Assembly: GCF_003268635.1 (NCBI RefSeq)
Contig: NZ_CP029639.1
Location: 3,607,501 to 3,671,500, forward strand
Source of the DNA: Paenibacillus sp. DCT19
GTDB taxonomy: Bacteria; Bacillota; Bacilli; Paenibacillales; Paenibacillaceae
Length of the DNA: 64,000 nt
Direction: 5' to 3'
Shown in pieces: positions 14,137 to 39,009 of the stretch. A model generated the notes under the pieces. It did not search any database and was not told where the DNA came from. It saw only the letters and a list, made by a program, of their open reading frames with translations. Every line of letters begins with the position of its first letter. The first letter of the stretch is position 1. The position numbers and the translations under genes were made by a program.

Positions 14137-14970
14137 TCAATTTTCAAAATCTGTTGAAAGAGCTACCTCCTTCTGCTCCTCTAGCGCAGCCAAACGTGAA
14201 GCCAAACTTTTAGAAACCAATTCATAGGCATCACTCCCCAGTGTTAGACGAAGAGTAGTTTCCTCGGAATCAGCTGCATTAATGATCGCCTGTGCCATTT
14301 TTACCGGATCACCAGGGAATTGGTTATCGCCCGCCTCTTGTGACATTTGGCGAATATAGCCTACAGGCGTATTTTCATATTCACTCATAGGCACACCTGC
14401 CATCATACTGCTGCCACCAAAGTTAGTTCGTGCACTGCCCGGTTCAACAAGCGTTGCTTGTATATTAAACGAAGCTACTTCCTGAACGAGAGATTCGATA
14501 AATCCTTCCATAGCCCACTTGGTTGCATGATAGATACTTAGAGCCGGGAACGCAACTTGACCACCCATACTGGAAAGTTGGAAGATTCGGCCTCCCCCTT
14601 GAGCACGAAGGTGTGGTAATGCTGCACGAATCACCTGGATAGACCCGATAACATTGGTATTGAACTGATGAATAATTTGTTCATCACTTACTTCCTCGGC
14701 TGCTCCAAACAGCCCATATCCTGCATTGTTGACCACAACATCAATTTGTCCTAGTTCCTCAAAAGCTTGATTAACCACGTTTTTAATGGCCGGAGTGTCG
14801 GTTACATCCAACGTAGCCACCCATAATTGATCTCCATAGCGATCTTTTAAGTCATGTAGCGCATTTTCTTTGCGAACCGTAGCTGCCACACGATCACCAC
14901 GTTCCAACAACAACTCTGTAAGACTACGTCCAAAACCACTCGATGTTCCTGTAATAAACCATGTTTTCAT
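14137..14970 (-). CDS. Short-chain dehydrogenase/reductase
   Basis: 277 residues. Classical SDR: cofactor motif TGTSSGFG near the N terminus, NNAGYG, active-site Ser and YHATK (Tyr-x-x-x-Lys). Close to SDRs acting on small carbonyls or alcohols. RBS GGAGG before ATG 14970. Last gene of a four-gene minus-strand operon (SDR, small protein, TetR, SDR). Substrate unknown. Confidence 0.88.
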   Translation of the reverse strand: MKTWFITGTSSGFGRSLTELLLERGDRVAATVRKENALHDLKDRYGDQLWVATLDVTDTPAIKNVVNQAFEELGQIDVVVNNAGYGLFGAAEEVSDEQIIHQFNTNVIGSIQVIRAALPHLRAQGGGRIFQLSSMGGQVAFPALSIYHATKWAMEGFIESLVQEVASFNIQATLVEPGSARTNFGGSSMMAGVPMSEYENTPVGYIRQMSQEAGDNQFPGDPVKMAQAIINAADSEETTLRLTLGSDAYELVSKSLASRLAALEEQKEVALSTDFEN

Positions 14971-15010
14971 ATAATAACGCCTCCATTTTAGTTTTTTATA
15001 CTCTGCTTGC

Positions 15011-15691
15011 TCATTGTGTGTCTTTATTCATTTTAGAGATGTAATTCATATGGTATCCGTCCAGATAACAACTCATCGTTTTCAGAACATCCTCGTTGAA
15101 GTTGCGTTGAAGTCCATCCAGACCGTTCTGCTTGATTATCTCCATGACCTCTTCGGGTAATGTGGCTGATAGCTTGCAACCTGTGATGATGGATGCTTCG
15201 GCTTGAAGAATTTCCATGACATCATCGGGTGTTACTGCATTTTCTGCACAAATCATAGTCACAAGTTCGGACATTAACGTGTACAGATTCAGTTTATGAT
15301 TCAGCATGGTTTCAGCATCTACATTTTTTTCAAAAACAGCAGTTCTCATCGATTCCAATTTGATGTATAGACCATTATCCTCAATCAGTTCTTTGAGTTC
15401 AGTCATCAACAGGTGTTTAAAATCAGCGAAGCTGTGAATGGACACTTCTTTCACCAATTCAGTTAATGACGCAAGTCGCTTCTCATACTCTCTGCATAAC
15501 AGACTGAAGAATAACGCTTCCTTTGTTTTGAAATAAACAAATAAAATTCCGTTGGACATCCCCATTCTTTTAGCGATATCTGACATTTTTATTTTTTCGT
15601 ACTCGGAGGTCAAAATAAGTTCAGCAGCCTGATCCATAATAGCTTTAGCTTTTAATGCTTTGGCTTCTGGTGTCATTGCTCGTTTAGCCAT
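15011..15691 (-). CDS. TetR/AcrR-family regulator
   Basis: 226 residues. N-terminal HTH (IKMSDIAKRMGMSNGILFVYFKTKEALFF) and a ligand-binding C-terminal part. ATG 15691 is preferred: GGAG lies 12 nt upstream, whereas the in-frame GTG 15703 is inside the RBS. Sits between two SDR genes, so it probably represses this operon. A palindrome in the promoter at 17055-17069 is a candidate operator. Confidence 0.87.
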   Translation of the reverse strand: MAKRAMTPEAKALKAKAIMDQAAELILTSEYEKIKMSDIAKRMGMSNGILFVYFKTKEALFFSLLCREYEKRLASLTELVKEVSIHSFADFKHLLMTELKELIEDNGLYIKLESMRTAVFEKNVDAETMLNHKLNLYTLMSELVTMICAENAVTPDDVMEILQAEASIITGCKLSATLPEEVMEIIKQNGLDGLQRNFNEDVLKTMSCYLDGYHMNYISKMNKDTQ

Positions 15692-16190: not shown

Positions 16191-17009
16191 TTATCCAAAC
16201 ATTTTAATAATTCTGTCGTAAGCACGATCTCCAAATACATTTTTCATAAATACCATCGGTTTTGCCATAAATCCTACCAGATAACGTGTTTTCGGTCTTC
16301 TTACCGTCACGGCTTTACCAATGGTACGTGCGATAAGTTCCGGTTTTGAAAGCTGATTGCCTGTATAGTTTTTGATCATACCCTCTGCTGACTTGTTTGC
16401 GGCTTCAGCATATGGGCCATTCGCTGATACTTTTTTCAGATGCTCGGCAGCAATGATACCCCAATCTGTTTTGATACCGCCCGGTTCTACCACAATCACG
16501 TCAATGCCGAAGGGTTCAAGTTCCAGTCGCAGGCAATCCGAAAGACCTTCCACTGCAAACTTGGTCGCATGGTACCAGGCACCGAAGTTAGTCCATATCT
16601 TCCCGCCCATTGAAGATACATTCACAATCTTACCGAACTTGTTTTTTCGCATGCTTGGTACGACCAGCTGAATCAGTCTCGCAAGTCCGAACACATTAAC
16701 TTCCATCTGCCGCCGCGCTTCTTCCATGGGAACATCCTCAAGCGCACCGTAAGACCCGTATCCGGCATTGTTCACCAGTACATCAATTCGTCCTTCTTTG
16801 CTTAAAATCTCATTGACCGCCGCAATCATGGACTCTTCATCCGTTACATCCATGGAAATAGGACGAATACCTTTGTTCGCAAGATCCTTCATTTTGTCAA
16901 TCCGGCGAGCTGCAGCATATACCGTAAAACCTTTGTCTTTCAGTTCAAGCGCAGCTTCTTTACCGATTCCTGACGATGCACCTGTAATTAAAGCAACTTG
17001 TTTACTCAT
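16191..17009 (-). CDS. Short-chain dehydrogenase/reductase
   Basis: 272 residues with TGASSGIGKE, NNAGYGSYG, SSMGGKI and YHATK (catalytic Tyr/Lys). ATG 17009 has GGAGG 9 nt upstream; the longer frame to 17048 has no RBS. First gene of the SDR-TetR operon. Similar in motifs to the SDR at 14137-14970, so the two may act on related substrates. Confidence 0.88.
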   Translation of the reverse strand: MSKQVALITGASSGIGKEAALELKDKGFTVYAAARRIDKMKDLANKGIRPISMDVTDEESMIAAVNEILSKEGRIDVLVNNAGYGSYGALEDVPMEEARRQMEVNVFGLARLIQLVVPSMRKNKFGKIVNVSSMGGKIWTNFGAWYHATKFAVEGLSDCLRLELEPFGIDVIVVEPGGIKTDWGIIAAEHLKKVSANGPYAEAANKSAEGMIKNYTGNQLSKPELIARTIGKAVTVRRPKTRYLVGFMAKPMVFMKNVFGDRAYDRIIKMFG

Positions 17010-17039
17010 GTTGTATAACCTCCACATATTTATTTGATT

Positions 17040-17069
17040 TTGAGTCAATTATATTTGACTTCGAATCAA
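17040..17069. promoter_or_regulatory. Candidate TetR operator in the SDR operon promoter
   Basis: TTGAGTCAA (17040-17048) and the imperfect palindrome TTGACTTCGAATCAA (17055-17069) lie just upstream of the first SDR start. Spacing and symmetry fit an operator for the operon's TetR protein; not proven. Confidence 0.45.
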
Positions 17070-17189
17070 TTGTCAATCATGTTTGTTTTATTTTTCTCGC
17101 GGTTCCGATATTGCTATTCATTTGAATTTTTTTATTCGGATATCGTAAAGGGATCGTCCGATTACAGACGATCCCTGGATCAATATTGC

Positions 17190-17480
17190 TTATTGATTAG
17201 CTGAAGACACTTTCTTTAGAAGCGTAGCTTGTTGTTTATAAAAAGATAAATTGTCTGGATGGGGGACATACGCCTCCTCCGATTTCTCAATCTCCTCTGT
17301 ACTTAAATGGATGTCCAACGATTCAATGGCATCCATTAAATGATGTTCCTTTGTAGCCCCAACAATTGGACAGTAACGGTATCCTTCTGCAATACCCATG
17401 CTAAAAATTCAGCTTCTAAGAAGAAGCTCTCTTGAATCCTCTGATTGAAATCCATTTCTTGCTCTACAAGAACTTGTACC
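17190..17480 (-). pseudogene. Aldo/keto reductase, 3' remnant
   Basis: The last part of an aldo/keto reductase. One frame reads FLEAEFLAWVLQKDTVT and, after a shift near 17365, CPIVGATKEHHLMDAIESLD and STEEIEKSEEAYVPHP. These match the family C terminus (ALAWVLQK...PIVGATK...YVPHP). The TIM barrel N-terminal two thirds, with Asp-Tyr-Lys-His catalytic residues, are missing. The remnant ends at a family A hairpin repeat (17467-17542), whose left end overlaps its 5' side. Non-functional. Confidence 0.75.
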
Positions 17481-17542
17481 GATAAAATAAAAAAGCCGCT
17501 AAAATAGCGACTTCAATGGGAATATGTTCTTGTACCTCGACA
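17467..17542. repeat. Hairpin repeat, family A, copy 1
   Basis: CAAGAACTTG arm, AT-rich spacer, central stem AAGCCGCT/AGCGACTT, CAATGGGAATAT, then ATGTTCTTGTACCTCGACA. Aligns over its full 76 bp with 27271-27347 with few differences. A second, more diverged unit follows at 17546-17615 (ATGTTCTTATCCCTC ... AAAAAGCCGCCC/GGGCGACC ... GACAAGAA). No coding capacity. Confidence 0.7.
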
Positions 17543-17633
17543 AACATGTTCTTATCCCTCATCTGAGCATCGAAAAAGCCGCCCACGGGCGACCTTTTGA
17601 CAAGAATACGATTTTCAATTTGAAGGATGATCA

Positions 17634-17771
17634 TCAGGACGTTGGATCATATAGGTCTGCATCATGTTCTTCGATCCAATCAATTTGCCTGTATCCATAG
17701 CCAGCCATCGTTTGCTGCACATCCAGCACCTCTAATTCCGGTGCCTGCCAAGGCGTTTGTTTCGTTTCCAT
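17634..17771 (-). CDS. Paeninodin-like lasso peptide precursor, unaccompanied
   Basis: 45-residue peptide from ATG 17771 to TGA 17634; RBS GGAGGGG 7 nt upstream. Leader begins METKQTPWQAPELEVLDV and ends QQTM, with the Thr at position -2 that lasso proteases need. The predicted 23-residue core starts AGYGYRQID: Ala1 with Gly2, Gly4 and Asp9 as ring acceptor, as in paeninodin (also 23 residues), and it ends YDPTS with a C-terminal Ser, the residue phosphorylated in paeninodin. No cyclase, RRE, protease, kinase or ABC gene is within the window. Start, RBS and motif all agree; activity is unknown. Confidence 0.85.
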   Translation of the reverse strand: METKQTPWQAPELEVLDVQQTMAGYGYRQIDWIEEHDADLYDPTS

Positions 17772-18111
17772 CGGTCGTCCCCTCCTTTCTACAAGAACTG
17801 GAACCAAGATGCGAGCACTCTTACATTACTTGCGCGTTACAAACAACTTAAGATACGATATGTATCTTCACGAAAATTATAAGACACAATACGTATCTGA
17901 GTAAACAACTATTTCATCCCTTTCTATGGGTTAAGTATTTCCCTGTAGCGCTACTGACCCAAGTTAAAGCCCACTCGCCTCTATAAAGTGTTTTTCTGGG
18001 ACAAGGCTAGCGTATAGTGACCGAAACGTTCCGCTTGTTTTCCTGCTGAAAAACTGTCGATTGACCTGTTTTATAAATGGAACTATACTTTGTAGCAAAG
18101 AAGGTGAATAG
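17772..18111. other. Intergenic region between lasso precursor and Rrf2 gene
   Basis: 340 bp. It carries a repeat arm (CTACAAGAACTGGAACC near 17789), a minus-strand -10 TATAAT (17876-17881) for the lasso gene, two palindromes (17850-17898) and the plus-strand Rrf2 promoter TTGACC-17-TATACT (18061-18089). Minus-strand frames across 17964-18257 show no family features. Confidence 0.5.
17850..17898. promoter_or_regulatory. Two operator-like palindromes around the lasso gene promoter
   Basis: AAGATAC-GATAT-GTATCTT (17850-17868) and AAGACAC-AATAC-GTATCT (17881-17898) start 31 bp apart, about three helix turns. The minus-strand TATAAT lies between them. A dimeric repressor such as the neighbouring Rrf2 protein could bind; this is inference. 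Confidence 0.5.
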
Positions 18112-18546
18112 ATGAAACAAATAAGCAGTCGCTTTTCGATGGCAGTCCATATTCTGTCGATGATTACGTTGGATCCCATATACAGTACGGGTGATCGAAT
18201 TGCACGTAGCATCAATAGTAACCCTGTTGTAATTAGAAGGATTATGGCACAACTCAAAAAAGCAGGGTATATTGAAACAAAACCAGGAGTTGCGGGAGCC
18301 TCCCTTCTGGTATCTCCTGAAAGATTAACCCTGCTCGATATCTTTCAAGCGGTCGAATCTGTGGAAGGAAATCAGCTTTTCAATTTTCACAAGAATACTG
18401 ACCCCAATTGCTCTGTAGGTATGAACATTGAATCGATACTATTACCAAAACTCTCTAATGCGCAGAAGGTCATGGAGCATGAACTGGCTTCTGTTACCCT
18501 AGCTCAAATTGTGGAGCAAATCCGAACAGAGGCAAATGTAAAATAA
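18112..18546 (+). CDS. Rrf2-family transcriptional regulator
   Basis: 144 residues. Rrf2 winged helix: FSMAVHILSMITLDP, then IARSINSNPVVIRRIMAQLK and KPGVAGASLLVSPERLTLLD. Only one cysteine (DPNCSVG) is present, so the three-Cys Fe-S motif of IscR/NsrR is missing, as in YwnA-like members. RBS AAGGTGA. Preceded by TTGACC-17 bp-TATACT and followed by a strong terminator. Target unknown; the divergent lasso precursor is the nearest candidate. Confidence 0.85.
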   Translation: MKQISSRFSMAVHILSMITLDPIYSTGDRIARSINSNPVVIRRIMAQLKKAGYIETKPGVAGASLLVSPERLTLLDIFQAVESVEGNQLFNFHKNTDPNCSVGMNIESILLPKLSNAQKVMEHELASVTLAQIVEQIRTEANVK

Positions 18547-18580
18547 AGCTACTCCTACGGTGTATGGAGTAGCTTTATTT
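18541..18580. terminator. Bidirectional terminator
   Basis: Perfect 15-bp stem AAATAAAGCTACTCC/GGAGTAGCTTTATTT with 10-nt loop, starting at the Rrf2 stop codon. T-rich on the plus side; can also end the convergent VOC gene transcript. Confidence 0.85.
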
Positions 18581-18604
18581 TACATTTTTTTAATTTTTCA
18601 TCAA

Positions 18605-27235: not shown

Positions 27236-27270
27236 GTGGCTGTACTGTATGAAGACAATTCAGCTTGGGA

Positions 27271-27347
27271 CAAGAACTTGGTTCCTTAAAACAAAAAAGC
27301 CGCTATAGTAGCGACTTTGAATGGGAATATGTTCTTGTCCCTCGACA
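27271..27347. repeat. Hairpin repeat, family A, copy 2
   Basis: Terminal inverted repeat GGGACAAGAAC (27267-27277)/GTTCTTGTCCC (27331-27341), central stem AAGCCGCTA/TAGCGACTT. Closely matches 17467-17542. The hairpin core resembles a terminator in both orientations. Confidence 0.7.
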
Positions 27348-33393: not shown

Positions 33394-33414
33394 TTTTAAG
33401 TTTGAGGCACCTGT

Positions 33415-34398
33415 TCACTGTATAGAACGTGCAAGTGCTGCAACAGAGCCGCGGAAATCGGGTCTGCCGTCTGCCGTCCACAAAAGCTCCGTCACAAATG
33501 TATGGCGATTCGGATCGTACAGCGGATCTCCTATAATGTTCTTGTATGTTCTTGCGTGAAACACAAATAGCGTCTTTTCGTCGTTCTCTGACATCGTGAA
33601 CGAATTATGACCGGGACCATACATAGAAATGCTCTCATCTGTCGAGAGAACCGGTGCTTGTGACTTGCGCCATGAGGTGGCATCAAGCAAATCAGCATCC
33701 GCATCGGCTTCAAGTAAGCCCATGCAATAATTATAATCAGTGGCGCTAGCCGAGTAAGAGAGGAATACCCGATTACCCTTGCGAAGAAATGCCGCGCCTT
33801 CGTTCACTTTATAACCAATGATCTCCCAGTCATATTCCGGCTTCGAAATCATCGCCTGCTGCCCAGTAAGCGTCCACGGATTGCTCATTTTAGATATATA
33901 CAGATTAGAGTTACCTTCGATATTCGGATCCTTTTGTGCCCATACGTAATAACGGCTGCCATTATGCTCAAAGGTAGTGGCATCGAGGGCGAAGCTTTCC
34001 CACTCGGTACGAACCTGCCCTCTTTCCGTCCAACTGCCTTCGAGCGGATTGGCATTTTCATTCTCTAGCACATACATCCGATGGTCGAACAAGCCTTCAT
34101 TCGTTTCCGTCGTGTGTGCGGCAGCGAAATACACGTACCATTTGTCATCAATAAAATGCAGTTCGGGTGCCCAAATATTGGCACTAAGAATACCCGTCTC
34201 GCGCTTTCTCCAGATCACTACGGGCGTTGATGTAACAAGCCCCTCAAGGTTCTGGGCTCTACGGATTTCAATTCGATCATACTCCGGAACAGACGCTACG
34301 AAGTAATAATAACCGTCCGAATGACGGTAAATAAAAGGATCTGCTCTCTGCTCAATTAAGGGTTGAATGTCGTGTGACGCTCGTTGCTCTATTTCCAT
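33415..34398 (-). CDS. Glycoside hydrolase family 43 (arabinan/arabinoxylan type)
   Basis: 327 residues, no signal peptide, so cytoplasmic. GH43 triad candidates: Asp in EQRADPFIYRHSDGYYYFVA, Asp in SFALDATTFEHNGSRYYVWA, Glu in KVNEGAAFLRKGNRVFLSYS. ATG 34398 (AGGTGAT) is 28 nt after the permease gene. It ends the SBP-permease-permease-GH43 operon and likely degrades the imported arabino- or xylo-oligosaccharides. Confidence 0.87.
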   Translation of the reverse strand: MEIEQRASHDIQPLIEQRADPFIYRHSDGYYYFVASVPEYDRIEIRRAQNLEGLVTSTPVVIWRKRETGILSANIWAPELHFIDDKWYVYFAAAHTTETNEGLFDHRMYVLENENANPLEGSWTERGQVRTEWESFALDATTFEHNGSRYYVWAQKDPNIEGNSNLYISKMSNPWTLTGQQAMISKPEYDWEIIGYKVNEGAAFLRKGNRVFLSYSASATDYNYCMGLLEADADADLLDATSWRKSQAPVLSTDESISMYGPGHNSFTMSENDEKTLFVFHARTYKNIIGDPLYDPNRHTFVTELLWTADGRPDFRGSVAALARSIQ

Positions 34399-34426
34399 CT
34401 TATCACCTGTTTCATCATAATATATG

Positions 34427-35275
34427 CTACCCTTTAACAGCACCTGCAGTCATACCGTCTATGAAATATTTCTGGAAAGCAATAAATAGGATGAAAATTG
34501 GAATGATGGAGAAGAAAGAGCCCACGATCAATAGGTCATAGTTATTGCCATAAGGAGTTAATAGCGTTTTCAAACCGATTGGAAGTGTATATTTACTCTG
34601 ATCTCCGAGCACCATGAATGGCCACAATAGATTATTCCAGCTATTCATACCATTCAGAATGGCCATTGCTGCAAAGGATGGCTTCATAATCGGCATAATT
34701 AGCCTGAAATAAATCGCATACTCGTTTGCGCCATCAACCCGCCCAGATTGAATAATCTCTTTGGGTATGCTTCGTAGATATTGCCTGAAGAAAAATATTG
34801 TCGCGGCATTGGCTATACCGGGCAGAATGATTGCCGAATAGCTATTCACCATTCCCAAATCATTAATTAGGCTATACAAAGGAACCAGCAGTATTTCGAA
34901 AGGCACCATCATAATGAGCAAAACACATATAAAGAGAAAGTTCTTACCTTTAAAATCATATGCCGCAAAACCATATGCAACAAATGCGCTTACAAAAAGT
35001 GTTAAAACCACTTGAGCGATTGTTAAAATCATACTGTTCCAAAACCACACAAAATAATCATGTTGTCCAGTAAACAGATAGATGAAATTATCAAAACTCA
35101 TGATTTCAAAATCCAAACTTAGGTTAAGACCATATCTAACTAATGATTCACCTGGTTTAAAGGAAGATAGGGCCACTGCATAGAATGGGATCATAATTAT
35201 AACGAATAGTACAATGAATAAACAGATAATTACTATTCTAGAGATGAAATCACTCCTCGTCTGACTTCTGCCCAC
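34427..35275 (-). CDS. Carbohydrate ABC transporter permease (MalG-like)
   Basis: 282 residues with six membrane segments and the EAA-type loop (IPKEIIQSGRVDGANEYAIY FRLIMPIMKP). GTG 35275 lies one nt after the upstream permease stop, with GGAGG 6 nt before. Inner membrane partner of the 35277 permease. Confidence 0.9.
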   Translation of the reverse strand: MGRSQTRSDFISRIVIICLFIVLFVIIMIPFYAVALSSFKPGESLVRYGLNLSLDFEIMSFDNFIYLFTGQHDYFVWFWNSMILTIAQVVLTLFVSAFVAYGFAAYDFKGKNFLFICVLLIMMVPFEILLVPLYSLINDLGMVNSYSAIILPGIANAATIFFFRQYLRSIPKEIIQSGRVDGANEYAIYFRLIMPIMKPSFAAMAILNGMNSWNNLLWPFMVLGDQSKYTLPIGLKTLLTPYGNNYDLLIVGSFFSIIPIFILFIAFQKYFIDGMTAGAVKG

Positions 35276-35276
35276 T

Positions 35277-36173
35277 TTAATCCTCCTCCTTTTTGAACAT
35301 TCCACTAAATTTCAACTGCGTTAAATTGATAACCATAGCAATGACTAACAGGACGATACCAACTGCAGCTGCATAACCCAGCTTATTCTGCTCAATCCCT
35401 TGTCTATACAGGTATCCAACAATGGTTAAACCAATATTTTTGGGTGAATTGTTACCGTTGAACATCATCAGACTCTCGGTAAACATGGCTAAACCTGCAT
35501 AAACACTAATTGTCGTAACATATACCGTGGTCGGCTTCAATAATGGCATTGTGATCGTTCTAAACTTCTGCCAAGCAGACGCCCCGTCAATTGAAGCAGC
35601 CTCATAATATTCATTGTCGATGCTCTTCAAACCGGATAGATAGTAAAGCATATTCACGCCTGTCCATCTCCAACATGCGAGGATTAACAGTGCTGCCATA
35701 CTCCAATTTCCGTCTTTCAAAAATTTAATAGGGTCTATACCAAATAAACCAAGGAAGCTGTTCATTAATGAACCTTCCATTTCACCGAATGTAAGGCGGA
35801 AAATCGTACCCGCAACTGCAACAGATGTCAATGCAGGGAGAAAGAACGAAGATTTAAAAAACTCTCTACCCATCATTAACTTACTGTTGATCATCACGGC
35901 AAATAACATTGGAAGAGGAATTAACAGCACTAAGGTTCCTAACATGTACACAACGCTATTTTTAATAGCCGTCAAAAACACTTTATCCGTAAGTAATTTC
36001 GAATAATTGGCTTCACCAATCCACTTAGGATCCTGACCCAACATCCGATCTTGAAAGCTCATTACGAATGAATTTACAAGCGGAAAAAACCAGAATATCA
36101 AAAATATAAGTATAAATGGCAATACGAAAACATAAGGTGCCACTTTTTGAGAGTATACAAATTTCTTTATCAT
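35277..36173 (-). CDS. Carbohydrate ABC transporter permease (MalF-like)
   Basis: 298 residues, six membrane segments, EAA loop YYEAASIDGASAWQKFRTIT. Second gene of the sugar ABC operon, 84 nt after the binding protein gene. No ATPase gene in the operon: such CUT1 systems usually share an MsmX-type ATPase encoded elsewhere. Confidence 0.9.
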   Translation of the reverse strand: MIKKFVYSQKVAPYVFVLPFILIFLIFWFFPLVNSFVMSFQDRMLGQDPKWIGEANYSKLLTDKVFLTAIKNSVVYMLGTLVLLIPLPMLFAVMINSKLMMGREFFKSSFFLPALTSVAVAGTIFRLTFGEMEGSLMNSFLGLFGIDPIKFLKDGNWSMAALLILACWRWTGVNMLYYLSGLKSIDNEYYEAASIDGASAWQKFRTITMPLLKPTTVYVTTISVYAGLAMFTESLMMFNGNNSPKNIGLTIVGYLYRQGIEQNKLGYAAAVGIVLLVIAMVINLTQLKFSGMFKKEED

Positions 36174-36198
36174 ATTCTCAATCTCCCTTGACTATGGT

Positions 36199-36234
36199 TA
36201 AACCTGCCGACTACGATAACTGCCGACAGGTTTA
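36199..36234 (-). promoter_or_regulatory. Hairpin between binding protein and permease genes
   Basis: Stem TAAACCTG/CAGGTTTA without a good T run. Likely a processing or attenuating stem-loop that keeps binding-protein mRNA in excess, as in other binding-protein operons. Confidence 0.5.
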
Positions 36235-36257
36235 ATCAAATCATTTACTTATTATAT

Positions 36258-37595
36258 TTATTTCAATTCTTGTTCAATTGCTGCTTGTGCTTCATCCAAC
36301 GCTTCCTTCACATCTTGGCCATCTTCAAAGATAGCATTCAAAGTAACCGTATTGAGGATATTGCCGATGGTTGGTGAAGCTTTAACGGACTTAATCGCTC
36401 TAATTTCGTCTTTGATTTCATTCAAAGTATCAAATGCATTTGTTTTAAAGTATTGGACGTATTCATTATCAGGGTTTTTCGTGACTGCATCATCTTTCCA
36501 TACTTCCATGTTGATTGGGTCGAATCCAAGTGTATTCCAGATTTCAGTAGTAGCTTCTTTCGAAAGCTTAGCAAAGGCTACAAATTCTTTTGCCAACTGA
36601 ACGTCTTTACCACTCTTAGTTACAACTGTACCCGTACCGCCTAAACCAACGGAACGGGGATTCCCTTCTTCAAATACAGGCAATGGAGCTATTGCATACT
36701 TACCATTAAGGTCCTTCATTTCGTTTACAAAGCGGGACATGTACCACTCAGGCATCAATGCGCTTGCGTAGTTGCCTTTGTTGTATTCGCCTTTTGCTTC
36801 CTCTGTGTCGGGCTGTCCGCCAGGGATCGTATGAATAACATTGTTTTTCTGCAGATCGACTAACATTTCATATGCTTTAATCATTTCAGGCGAGTTCACT
36901 TTTGGATTACCATTTTCATCTGTAAAATCAGCATTTTGCTGAGCTAGCAGCAGCGATGCTTGCCACGTAGCTGATGTATCAGCAGTACCTAAGTACTTTC
37001 CAGTCTTTTCATAAACCTTGATACCTGCCTGCTTGTAATCTTCCCACGTTTTGATTGTCTTGTAGTCAACACCTGCTTGCTCGAGAATTTCAGTATTGTA
37101 GAAAGCAAGCGTCGCACCTACGTGATAATCGAATCCATAAACCTGATCGGCTTTGGAATAAATCTCGACACGTGAAGGAACAACAACGTCTTTGTATGGT
37201 GCAAATACATCATTCAAAGATTCCAGGGGAACGTTGTCACCTTCCAAGAATTTAGGGAATTGACCAAGTTCAATATCCGCGATATCAGGAGCACCTTTTC
37301 CGCTTGTAACTGCCAATAGGAGCTTGTTGTGCATATCATCGTAAGGCATAACCGTTACATTCAACTTAATCTGTTTGTCTGGGTTCTGTTCGTTCCATAA
37401 CCCCAGCATTTTATCCAAATGCTTGCCGTGCAAATCTACGAATGTCCAAAATGATAACTCTGTTGCATTCTCACCGGCATTAGCGCCTAATTGCTGTGTT
37501 TCCGTTTTTGAATCGGAAGCATTACCACATGCAGTAAAAAAAAGTGACATAATAAGGAGTGTAACGATGGAGATTAAAGCACTTCGTTTTTTCAT
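36258..37595 (-). CDS. Extracellular sugar-binding lipoprotein
   Basis: 445 residues. Lipoprotein signal with lipobox FTAC (Cys at about residue 22). SBP family 1 pattern: ELSFWTFVDLHGKHLDKMLG, PDIADIELGQFPKFLEGDNV, KYAIAPLPVFEEGNPRSVGL. Captures oligosaccharides for the two permeases. First gene of the operon; a cre site lies upstream at 37757. Confidence 0.92.
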   Translation of the reverse strand: MKKRSALISIVTLLIMSLFFTACGNASDSKTETQQLGANAGENATELSFWTFVDLHGKHLDKMLGLWNEQNPDKQIKLNVTVMPYDDMHNKLLLAVTSGKGAPDIADIELGQFPKFLEGDNVPLESLNDVFAPYKDVVVPSRVEIYSKADQVYGFDYHVGATLAFYNTEILEQAGVDYKTIKTWEDYKQAGIKVYEKTGKYLGTADTSATWQASLLLAQQNADFTDENGNPKVNSPEMIKAYEMLVDLQKNNVIHTIPGGQPDTEEAKGEYNKGNYASALMPEWYMSRFVNEMKDLNGKYAIAPLPVFEEGNPRSVGLGGTGTVVTKSGKDVQLAKEFVAFAKLSKEATTEIWNTLGFDPINMEVWKDDAVTKNPDNEYVQYFKTNAFDTLNEIKDEIRAIKSVKASPTIGNILNTVTLNAIFEDGQDVKEALDEAQAAIEQELK

Positions 37596-37756
37596 TTGTT
37601 CGTCATCCTCTCTTTTGGTTATGCATTTGAAAAGTCGGCTGACTAGTTAGTTCTGTTAATTTAAGCGGTTTCAATTCATCTGGTACCACCATCCTTAACA
37701 ATATTTCTAACCGTTCAAAGAAAAGACCCCTTCGCAACAATTTCTCAGACTCCATA

Positions 37757-37772
37757 TTGTAAGCGCTTTACA
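37757..37772. promoter_or_regulatory. cre site for CcpA
   Basis: TTGTAAGCGCTTTACA closely fits the catabolite-responsive consensus. It lies between the divergent binding-protein and regulator genes, so both may be under glucose repression. Confidence 0.8.
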
Positions 37773-37854
37773 TGCCGTATTATAATATATATGAAATAAG
37801 CTTTATATAACCAATTGATTATAAAATCATAAAGTTTATGGGGAGATGCTACTC

Positions 37855-38919
37855 TTGAAAAAGCTGGCGCTCTACAAACAAATTCGAGAAAATATTATAC
37901 AGAAAATTAAATCAGGGCAGCTTCGGCCAACGGACCGTATTCCTTCTGAGCAGGAACTAATGGACGAATTCAGAGTAAGTAAAATAACCGTCAAGAACGC
38001 CCTAACCCTACTAGCTGACGAAGGATTCATTATACGCATACAAGGCAAAGGCTCATTCGTCTCTTCTAGTCTTGTGGTTTCTAGCATCAATTTCTCGCCA
38101 TCCCCAAGCAGCCCGTCCTCCATGCCGCTCATCGGCTTCATTATTCCGACGATGAGAACCCGTGTCATTCAGAAGCTCGTTGACTACACGGAACACTTCA
38201 TACAAGAAGCGGGTCTCAGCATGGTACTAAGCATCACGCGCGAGTCTTCCTCGATCGAATCAAACGTCATTCGTACACTAACGGAGCTCGGTGTGAAGGG
38301 GCTGATCGTCTTTCCGACAGAAGATGAGAAGTACAACGAATCATTACTGCGTCTGTCGCTCGATAAATTCCCGTGTGTGTTCATCGACCGCTATCTGCGC
38401 AACATTGAGACGTACACCATTACATCCGACAATTACGGCGGTGCGTATAAAGCTGTATCCCATTTGCTATCCAAGAGTCATCAGCAGATTGCGCTCATCT
38501 CACCTGAAAATGCCAATACAGCCGTCGAGGATCGTACGCTCGGCTTCGAGCAGGCGTATACAGATCAAGGGATCTCCATTGACAAAAGCTTGTGGTGTCA
38601 CATTCCTCTCGACATTCTACGCAGCGAGCAAGCATTAGACTATGTAAGTGACTTCTTGCAAAACCACAGTGGAATTTCGGCAGCCTTCTCCTTGACTGAA
38701 GAAACAGCACGCCTTACATTGGCCGCGATCAGTCGTCTGAACGTTCACTCCAATATCGATTTGTTATCTTTTGATAATCCACATCTTTCAGGCGTACCTT
38801 ATGTACAGCAGGATGAACAGGAAATGGCACGAACAGCCGTAAAGCTGTTACGTGAACAGATGGAAGATATTTATTCTCCTAAGAACGCCATTATTCCCGT
38901 GCAACTCATCTTCCCTTGA
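37855..38919 (+). CDS. GntR-LacI hybrid repressor, AraR-like
   Basis: 354 residues. N-terminal GntR winged helix (LYKQIRENIIQKIKSGQLRP, IPSEQELMDEFRVSKITVKN) joined to a LacI/GalR periplasmic-binding-like effector domain (LIGFIIPTMRTRVIQKLVDY; VFIDRYLRN; DLLSFDNPHLSGVPYVQQDE). This combination is that of AraR. TTG 37855 has GGGGAG 9 nt upstream; the ATG at 37846 touches the RBS. Divergent from the ABC-GH43 operon, which it probably represses in the absence of arabinose or an oligosaccharide. Confidence 0.87.
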   Translation: MKKLALYKQIRENIIQKIKSGQLRPTDRIPSEQELMDEFRVSKITVKNALTLLADEGFIIRIQGKGSFVSSSLVVSSINFSPSPSSPSSMPLIGFIIPTMRTRVIQKLVDYTEHFIQEAGLSMVLSITRESSSIESNVIRTLTELGVKGLIVFPTEDEKYNESLLRLSLDKFPCVFIDRYLRNIETYTITSDNYGGAYKAVSHLLSKSHQQIALISPENANTAVEDRTLGFEQAYTDQGISIDKSLWCHIPLDILRSEQALDYVSDFLQNHSGISAAFSLTEETARLTLAAISRLNVHSNIDLLSFDNPHLSGVPYVQQDEQEMARTAVKLLREQMEDIYSPKNAIIPVQLIFP

Positions 38920-39009
38920 CACGATAAACGTTGCAGCCAGGCGATTAATGAACTTGGCATATTCAAATTGGTTTTTCTTATGTAAATTAAAAGCTTGACT
39001 AAAAAGATT

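What the first reader, a model, noticed from the sequence alone, without database searches (positions are those of the whole stretch)
17634..17771. Orphan paeninodin-like lasso peptide precursor
A 45-codon gene with a strong RBS encodes a leader ending in Thr-Met and a 23-residue core starting AGYGYRQID: Gly2, Gly4, Asp9 ring acceptor and a C-terminal Ser, as in paeninodin. No lasso cyclase, RRE, leader peptidase, kinase or exporter is encoded anywhere in 64 kb. Either the maturation genes act in trans, or this is a solitary relic kept with its promoter. Its aromatic, Arg-containing ring (Tyr3, Tyr5, Arg6) differs from paeninodin.
Basis: partly seen in the sequence, partly recalled or inferred. 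Interest (0 to 1): 0.85.

Follow-up and report, generated by a model that had tools for sequence, protein, structure and literature searches.

The report
Unlinked lasso precursor in shared regulon
A solitary gene for a knotted (lasso) peptide carries the same rare control switch as the genome's distant lasso-making operon and a sugar-coat operon, so it looks like a spare peptide template wired to that machinery, although copies in related species seem short-lived and are often broken.

Summary
The ORF is real: a paeninodin-family lasso precursor (NF033524, 56.7 bits, cut-off 27). It does not lack machinery: about 1.55 Mb away the same Paenibacillus chromosome has a lasso operon (sulfotransferase, cyclase, own precursor AGKGYRQID..., HprK-like kinase reading in two frames, RRE, B2, nucleotidyltransferase, ABC exporter). 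The solitary promoter holds a tandem operator of two GATACN5GTRTC-type palindromes. This tandem occurs three times in the genome: here, at the lasso operon, and at an exopolysaccharide operon divergent from a conserved XRE regulator. In the genus, 143 of 143 listed sites (68 genomes; listing cut) fall in those three classes; the reversed control gives 0 in 75 genomes. Unlinked copies occur in 14 of 75 genomes as a ~450-bp unit with differing flanks. Operator half-sites do not vary in 13 aligned copies, but the peptide evolves near-neutrally (omega 0.8-0.9; clustered precursors 0.085), and 6 of 15 copies lack an ATG or carry a stop. Best reading: a young, mobile, co-regulated extra precursor matured in trans, in fast birth-and-death. 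My searches listed no paper on this. Production of the peptide is untested.

The parts
17634..17771 (-). solitary paeninodin-family lasso precursor, 45 aa plus stop; leader residues 1-22 (17706-17771), core residues 23-45 (17637-17705)
   Evidence: intact here, 96% identical copy in G067
17779..17788 (-). Shine-Dalgarno AAAGGAGGGG
   Evidence: read; AAAGGAGG kept in 11 of the 15 solitary loci (read)
17852..17866 (.). operator dyad 2, GATACATATCGTATC
   Evidence: half-sites invariant in 13 aligned loci
17876..17881 (-). -10 hexamer TATAAT (with TTTACT at 17900-17905 as -35, spacer 18)
   Evidence: 10 of 12 consensus matches; the scan found 2 promoter-like sites in the region and shuffles average 1.1, so by itself this is chance level
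17883..17897 (.). operator dyad 1, GATACGTATTGTGTC, inside the promoter spacer
   Evidence: same place in the lasso-operon and EPS promoters
17543..17995 (-). ~450-bp unit (promoter, ORF, terminator-like hairpin) shared with unrelated immediate flanks in relatives
17573..17598 (-). terminator-like hairpin GGTCGCC-CGTG-GGCGGC then T5, conserved in the unit
   Evidence: read by eye; NOT called by the terminator scan
17466..17542 (.). 77-bp dispersed repeat abutting the unit; not part of the gene

Best explanation
The gene is a supplementary lasso-peptide precursor that sits outside the biosynthetic operon but is switched on and off together with it. Shown: a paeninodin-type operon with its own, very similar precursor lies about 1.55 Mb away, and a tandem operator that occurs in the genome only at that operon, at this gene and at an exopolysaccharide operon overlaps this gene's promoter. 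Inferred: the XRE-family regulator encoded beside the exopolysaccharide operon binds the operator (as repressor, from its position in the spacer and near the start point); when it lets go, the operon's RRE binds the W-15/P-12/L-10 leader, B2 cuts after Thr-Met, the cyclase joins Ala1 to Asp9 and the ABC protein exports the product. The ~450-bp unit is young, has moved between genomes or sites, and is in birth-and-death: operators are kept while many copies of the peptide decay; the copy in this genome is intact.
For: Lasso operon in the genome. Precursors share W-15, P-12, L-10, T-2 and Asp9; a paeninodin-type RRE prefers W at -15 (PMC13381572 section 9), and PadeB1 binds its leader at Kd 5.3 nM and presents it to B2 (PMC5067487, passages). 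Tandem operator at exactly 3 places in 6.67 Mb. In the genus 143 of 143 listed sites (68 of the 71 genomes with a match; listing cut) are XRE/EPS (66), lasso operon (64) or solitary precursor (13); reversed-pattern control 0 in 75 genomes. 13 of 15 solitary loci carry the exact tandem operator; the other two (G010, G011) differ by one base. Half-sites 0 of 20 columns variable against 52 of 114 other upstream columns, p = 2.6e-5. The clustered precursor has no operator just upstream; its operator lies about 3.4 kb away before the sulfotransferase, so copying the precursor alone would not have brought it.
Against: Among solitary copies the ORF shows no protein-level constraint: omega 0.90 (13 loci) or 0.81 (11 open loci), not distinguishable from 1; variable columns by codon position 13/13/16 (13 loci) against 12/6/32 in 15 clustered precursors. 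Of 15 loci, 2 have internal stops and 4 more lack an ATG. In this genome the operon's kinase reads in two frames, so the C-terminal phosphate may be missing on any product. Five of the 15 copies have one residue more between the leader motif and Thr-2, putting Trp at -16. Co-occurrence with a cyclase is uninformative, because 72 of 75 genus genomes have one. The XRE gene is also present in the four genomes without any match to the operator. The looser single-palindrome search was not specific by itself: 10 hits against 7 for its reversed control. No transcript, binding or mass data.
Confidence: 0.55

Rival explanations
1. Relic: a recently dispersed copy that still has its promoter but makes nothing selected; the intact reading frame here is only young.
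For: omega near 1, flat codon-position pattern, 6 of 15 copies compromised, synonymous divergence below that of neighbouring genes (solitary ORF G000-G067: 0 changes at 29 synonymous sites, against dS 0.12-0.31 for seven neighbouring genes).
Against: Operator half-sites are invariant while surrounding bases vary; core and leader recognition residues are all intact in this genome; ORF columns vary somewhat less than other upstream columns (42 of 132 against 52 of 114, p = 0.035); omega falls to 0.39 when the separate G010/G011 lineage is included.
Confidence: 0.33
2. The unit is kept for its operator, as a binding site that titrates or senses the XRE regulator, and the peptide is incidental.
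For: Operator half-sites intact in all 13 aligned loci, including both copies with internal stops.
Against: One site more on top of two would titrate little; unit divergence is low, so retention can also reflect youth; leader and core residues still match the machinery.
Confidence: 0.06
3. Precursor served by another RRE pathway in the genome, for example a linear phosphopeptide (LPP) system.
For: LPP and paeninodin pathways often share a genome (PMC13381572, abstract and passages). Whether this genome has an LPP system was not searched.
Against: LPP leaders carry YxxP, this one WxxP; the promoter links it to the lasso operon instead.
Confidence: 0.03
4. Simple vertical inheritance of an old solitary paralogue.
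For: Several copies lie in the same broad chromosomal neighbourhood (tdh/kbl block; block 33402-38938).
Against: The unit is 94% identical between G000 and G067, whose neighbouring genes have pS 0.11-0.26, but 73% between G000 and G035, whose neighbours have pS 0.09-0.15; window 15000-19700 matches only repeats in the near relatives G034 and G064.
Confidence: 0.03

Closest known systems
Paeninodin (padeA and its operon, Paenibacillus dendritiformis)
   Same: Leader with WxxP and T-2, Asp9 as ring acceptor, C-terminal Ser, HMM family NF033524; the genome's operon has cyclase, kinase, split B1/B2 and ABC exporter.
   Different: This precursor is outside the operon, has its own operator-bearing promoter, and has a different ring (AGYGYRQID). 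The operon also has a sulfotransferase and a nucleotidyltransferase, already noted for Firmicute clusters (PMC8498205, passage).
Lasso clusters with several precursor genes
   Same: More than one precursor per machinery; tandem second precursors sit inside the operon in G003, G033, G067, G068.
   Different: Here the extra precursor is unlinked, in a small unit with changing flanks and its own copy of the operator.
RiPP systems with precursors scattered away from one enzyme, such as prochlorosins (recalled, no call)
   Same: One enzyme set, unlinked substrates.
   Different: A lasso pathway, and the link is a specific operator shared with the operon. Unclustered RiPP enzymes, the mirror case, are reported for lanthipeptide proteases (PMC8960859, search listing only).
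PBSX Xre-type operators (GATAC...GTATC palindromes; recalled, a literature search for the exact 15-mer found no paper)
   Same: 15-bp palindrome with GATAC/GTATC arms beside an XRE-family gene.
   Different: Chromosomal regulon of a lasso operon, an EPS operon and solitary precursors; binding not tested.

Membership tests
Paeninodin-family lasso precursor (NF033524) | score above the curated HMM cut-off | tested here: met
   56.7 bits against 27
Paeninodin-family lasso precursor (NF033524) | WxxP leader motif at -15/-12 and Thr at -2 | tested here: met
   W8, P11, T21; invariant in the 11 aligned solitary and clustered precursors
Paeninodin-family lasso precursor (NF033524) | small residue 1, Asp/Glu at 7-9 to close the ring, C-terminal Ser | tested here: met
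   Ala1, Asp9, Ser23
Paeninodin-family lasso precursor (NF033524) | cognate cyclase, RRE, B2 in the same genome | tested here: met
   one operon, unlinked
Paeninodin-family lasso precursor (NF033524) | intact HprK-like kinase for the C-terminal Ser | tested here: inconclusive
   in this assembly the kinase homology lies in two frames; frameshift or assembly error not told apart
Functional lasso gene under selection | purifying selection on the peptide | tested here: not met
   omega 0.81-0.90 in the main solitary group; 0.39 with G010/G011; 0.085 in 15 clustered precursors
Functional lasso gene under selection | threaded product in extracts | not testable with these tools
   needs mass spectrometry
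Member of the lasso/EPS tandem-operator regulon | tandem GATAC-N5-GTRTC operator overlapping a promoter | tested here: met
   the promoter itself is a consensus match only
Member of the lasso/EPS tandem-operator regulon | bound by the adjacent-locus XRE regulator | not testable with these tools
   inferred from a site beside the XRE gene in 66 of 68 listed genomes
Mobile unit | same unit with unrelated immediate flanks, phylogeny at odds with neighbours | tested here: met
Mobile unit | transposase, terminal repeats or target duplication, or a plasmid/phage carrier | tested here: inconclusive
   abutting 77-bp repeat; no plasmid or phage match; ends and target duplications not examined

The most novel reading that the evidence does not exclude
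Paenibacillus runs a distributed lasso-peptide regulon. One maturation operon, an exopolysaccharide operon and unlinked precursor genes are tied together by one XRE regulator through a tandem operator. The precursors are small mobile cassettes that have captured this operator and supply interchangeable cores in trans. A second unlinked WxxP-leader peptide family (31 of 75 genomes; a single dyad operator upstream in 9 of the 10 loci read) would be another client, making the lasso RRE a hub for several dispersed peptides made together with the extracellular matrix.
Probability: 0.4. Interest if true: 0.78.

Novelty: new variant of a known kind. Interest (0 to 1): 0.62.

Why it matters
Genome miners mostly look for lasso peptides by gene neighbourhood (general knowledge), so an unlinked precursor is missed or called orphan. 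Here a DNA operator, not proximity, appears to tie precursor and machinery together, which gives a computable rule for finding trans precursors and a named candidate regulator to test. It also suggests a physiological setting for the lasso peptide (made with exopolysaccharide), a question that is usually open for these compounds (general knowledge). The near-neutral, break-prone copies beside strictly constrained clustered precursors give a direct view of birth and death of RiPP substrates.

Tried and rejected
Pfam has no model matching the ORF. Rfam, permissive search of 17000-18600: 3 hits, all below gathering score; one (Trp_leader, 19.8 bits, gathering 41) lies on the minus strand at 17486-17548, mostly in the repeat, and was not pursued. 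Co-occurrence of solitary precursor and cyclase was rejected as evidence because 72 of 75 genomes have the cyclase. The first operator search (one palindrome plus TATAAT, two mismatches) gave 10 hits against 7 for the reversed control and was replaced by the tandem pattern, whose control is 0 in 75 genomes. The first conservation test (0 of 20 against 68 of 114, p = 1.3e-7) counted gaps as variation, inflated by a deletion in G035; it was redone ignoring gaps (52 of 114, p = 2.6e-5; without G035 47 of 114, p = 8.5e-5). The omega = 1 model used kappa 2.0 rather than the fitted value, so its 2dlnL figures (1.1, 1.4, 13.8 and 111.6) are upper bounds. The 15 clustered precursors used there were chosen from the loci held, not all of them. 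I first took the named collection for an independent check; its nine unlinked loci are the same contigs as nine of the 15, so it is not. An integron-like reading of the repeats was considered and dropped: the repeat ends do not match the attC core sites that I recall. Plasmid or phage carriage was sought and not found. Literature: ten searches listed no paper that, by title or start of abstract, treats an unlinked lasso precursor or a lasso/EPS regulon; the listings were capped (30 of 105; 12 of 19; 15 of 24; 12 of 13), and one search listed 14 of 15. Only three papers were opened, in part (PMC13381572: outline, passages, section 9; PMC8498205 and PMC5067487: passages), and most subscription papers are not held.

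Full report
What is there. The minus-strand ORF at 17634-17771 encodes METKQTPWQAPELEVLDVQQTM / AGYGYRQIDWIEEHDADLYDPTS. NCBIfam NF033524, the paeninodin lasso family, matches at 56.7 bits with a curated cut-off of 27. Counting back from the core, the leader has W-15, P-12, L-10 and T-2. Upstream lie AAAGGAGGGG, TATAAT at 17876-17881 and, 18 bases further upstream, TTTACT; as a consensus match alone this promoter is at chance level (2 found, 1.1 expected). None of seven lasso-operon proteins has a specific match in the window; the one hit is an ABC ATPase domain at 28% identity.

The machinery is elsewhere in the same chromosome. The window is bases 3607501-3671500 of a single 6.67-Mb contig. 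At 2.064-2.072 Mb there is an operon (locus L010): sulfotransferase, asparagine-synthetase-like cyclase, precursor (AGKGYRQIDWITEHDADLYDPPVS), HprK-like kinase, PqqD-type RRE, B2 peptidase, nucleotidyltransferase and ABC exporter, followed by an APS kinase gene on the other strand. The solitary precursor is 71% identical to the clustered one. Sulfotransferase and nucleotidyltransferase genes in such clusters are known (PMC8498205, passage read). In this assembly the kinase homology is split between two frames. The genus is Paenibacillus, by named relatives such as P. xylanexedens, P. barcinonensis and P. amylolyticus.

A shared operator. The solitary promoter contains two palindromes, GATACGTATTGTGTC in the -35/-10 spacer and GATACATATCGTATC just after the -10. 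Allowing two mismatches, a pattern of the first palindrome plus TATAAT gave ten places in the genome, against seven for the reversed control, so this search alone is not specific. Besides this gene, three of the ten keep both palindrome arms: the promoter about 110 bp before the first ORF of the lasso operon, a site before a third WxxP-leader peptide, and a site before an exopolysaccharide operon (sequences). The other six have a changed arm; I did not look at their surroundings. The tandem form (GATACN5GTRTC, 15-21 bases, TACN5GTATC) occurs three times in this genome: here, at the lasso operon and at the exopolysaccharide operon (CpsB/CapC, Wzz, a ParA-like ATPase taken by its place for the tyrosine kinase, sugar transferases, Wzy). 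The last site lies between that operon and a divergent XRE-family gene whose best match is present in 75 of 75 genomes at 67-100% identity, including the four genomes where the operator pattern is not found.

Specificity across the genus. In 75 genomes the tandem pattern is found in 71 and its reversed control in none. The listing was cut after G070, leaving out ten matches in G071-G073 (six of them in G071). In the 68 genomes listed, 143 of 143 sites lie, by start coordinates, within 1 kb of the XRE gene (66), within 6 kb of the lasso cyclase (64) or within 400 bp of a solitary precursor (13), and none is elsewhere. Four listed genomes with a cyclase (G009, G010, G011, G024) lack an exact site at the operon, and two (G007, G045) lack one at the XRE gene. 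Thirteen of 15 solitary loci carry the exact pattern; G010 and G011 differ in the last base. In a named collection, 9 of 54 precursor loci lack a cyclase within the flank held, and all 9 have the operator beginning 96-127 bp before the matched ORF; of the 45 linked loci 33 have it, and the 12 without are mostly more distant lineages.

How the solitary copies evolve. They occur in 14 of 75 genomes (15 loci, two in G004). Compared with this window, the block shared around the ORF ends within about 225 bases before and 260 after the ATG in all 14 other loci, while some pairs of relatives share more (G010/G011 throughout; G005/G052 to +1426). Several copies lie in the same broad neighbourhood. The unit's relationships are at odds with its neighbours: 94% DNA identity between G000 and G067, whose neighbouring genes have synonymous divergence 0.12-0.31, but 73% between G000 and G035, whose neighbours are about as close or closer (0.10-0.17). 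Window 15000-19700 matches only repeats in the near relatives G034 and G064. A 77-bp repeat abuts the unit; a 91-base query holding it has 19 matches in the genome, itself included and many partial, 17 of them between 3.557 and 3.749 Mb on one strand. The unit therefore looks young and has moved; by what means is not shown.

Selection. Clustered precursors are strongly constrained: omega 0.085 in 15 loci, variable columns by codon position 12/6/32. Solitary copies are not: omega 0.90 in 13 loci and 0.81 in the 11 open ones, neither separable from 1, and columns 13/13/16 in 13 loci. With the separate G010/G011 lineage the value is 0.39. Of 15 loci, 9 start with ATG and are open, 4 are open with ATA, ATT or CTG in that place, and 2 have an internal stop (one of these has also lost the ATG); G006 has lost the C-terminal Ser. 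In contrast no operator half-site column (0 of 20) varies in 13 loci, against 52 of 114 other upstream columns (p = 2.6e-5). Near-neutral averages can hide diversifying selection; core residue 3 is Y, H, R, L, P or A in solitary copies.

Mechanism. The clustered precursor has no operator directly in front of it; the operon's operator is about 3.4 kb upstream. A plain copy of the precursor would not have carried it, so the solitary unit combines the precursor with a promoter of this regulon. The leader keeps the residues that paeninodin RREs read: in P. alginolyticus the RRE prefers Trp at -15, with Tyr tolerated at lower affinity (PMC13381572 section 9), and PadeB1 binds its leader at 5.3 nM and hands it to B2 (PMC5067487, passages). 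The best-supported account is therefore co-expression with the operon and maturation in trans, giving an alternative ring with Tyr3. The regulator's identity, repression, processing and export are inferred.

Verdict. The new element is the operator-defined regulon joining a lasso operon, an exopolysaccharide operon and unlinked precursors.

Noticed in passing
L003:1459-1617 (G000:C1:2456861-2457016), relatives L200-L209: A third unlinked peptide with a WxxP, lasso-like leader and a conserved Trp-rich tail (about GIWxYVWDGEFWKLELLxS), matched in 31 of 75 genomes, one copy with an internal stop. A single dyad operator lies 67-83 bp before the matched stretch in 9 of the 10 loci read (the tenth was held in reverse orientation and not re-read). 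No Asp/Glu at ring positions 7-9 after the expected cut, so perhaps not a lasso.
   Followed up: partly
L140:9312-18284 (G000:C1:1.479-1.488 Mb): Exopolysaccharide operon under the tandem operator, divergent from an XRE regulator found in 75 of 75 genus genomes.
   Followed up: partly
L010:9578-10506: HprK-like kinase homology of the lasso operon lies in two frames in this assembly; in G005 it lies in three pieces.
   Followed up: partly
L010:5862-7184 and 14575-15213: Sulfotransferase at the head of the lasso operon, overlapping the cyclase start, and an APS kinase gene beyond its end; both found at all 15 near-relative operons examined besides G000, while in the more distant G025 only the sulfotransferase was found. 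Suggests sulfation of the peptide.
   Followed up: partly
window 17466-17542, 27262-27347 and elsewhere: 77-bp dispersed repeat with inverted ends; 19 matches in the genome (itself included), 17 on one strand between 3.557 and 3.749 Mb.
   Followed up: partly
G003, G033, G067, G068 lasso operons: A second, tandem precursor inside the operon.
   Followed up: no
G037:C5:230463-232390 and G050:C1:2585894-2587823: Lasso cyclase homology in two pieces, while G037 still has a solitary precursor.
   Followed up: no
G071: Six matches to the tandem operator instead of the usual two or three; places not listed by the tool.
   Followed up: no
window 17190-17455: Two overlapping short ORFs that look by eye like the end of a broken aldo/keto reductase (recalled resemblance, not tested).
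   Followed up: no
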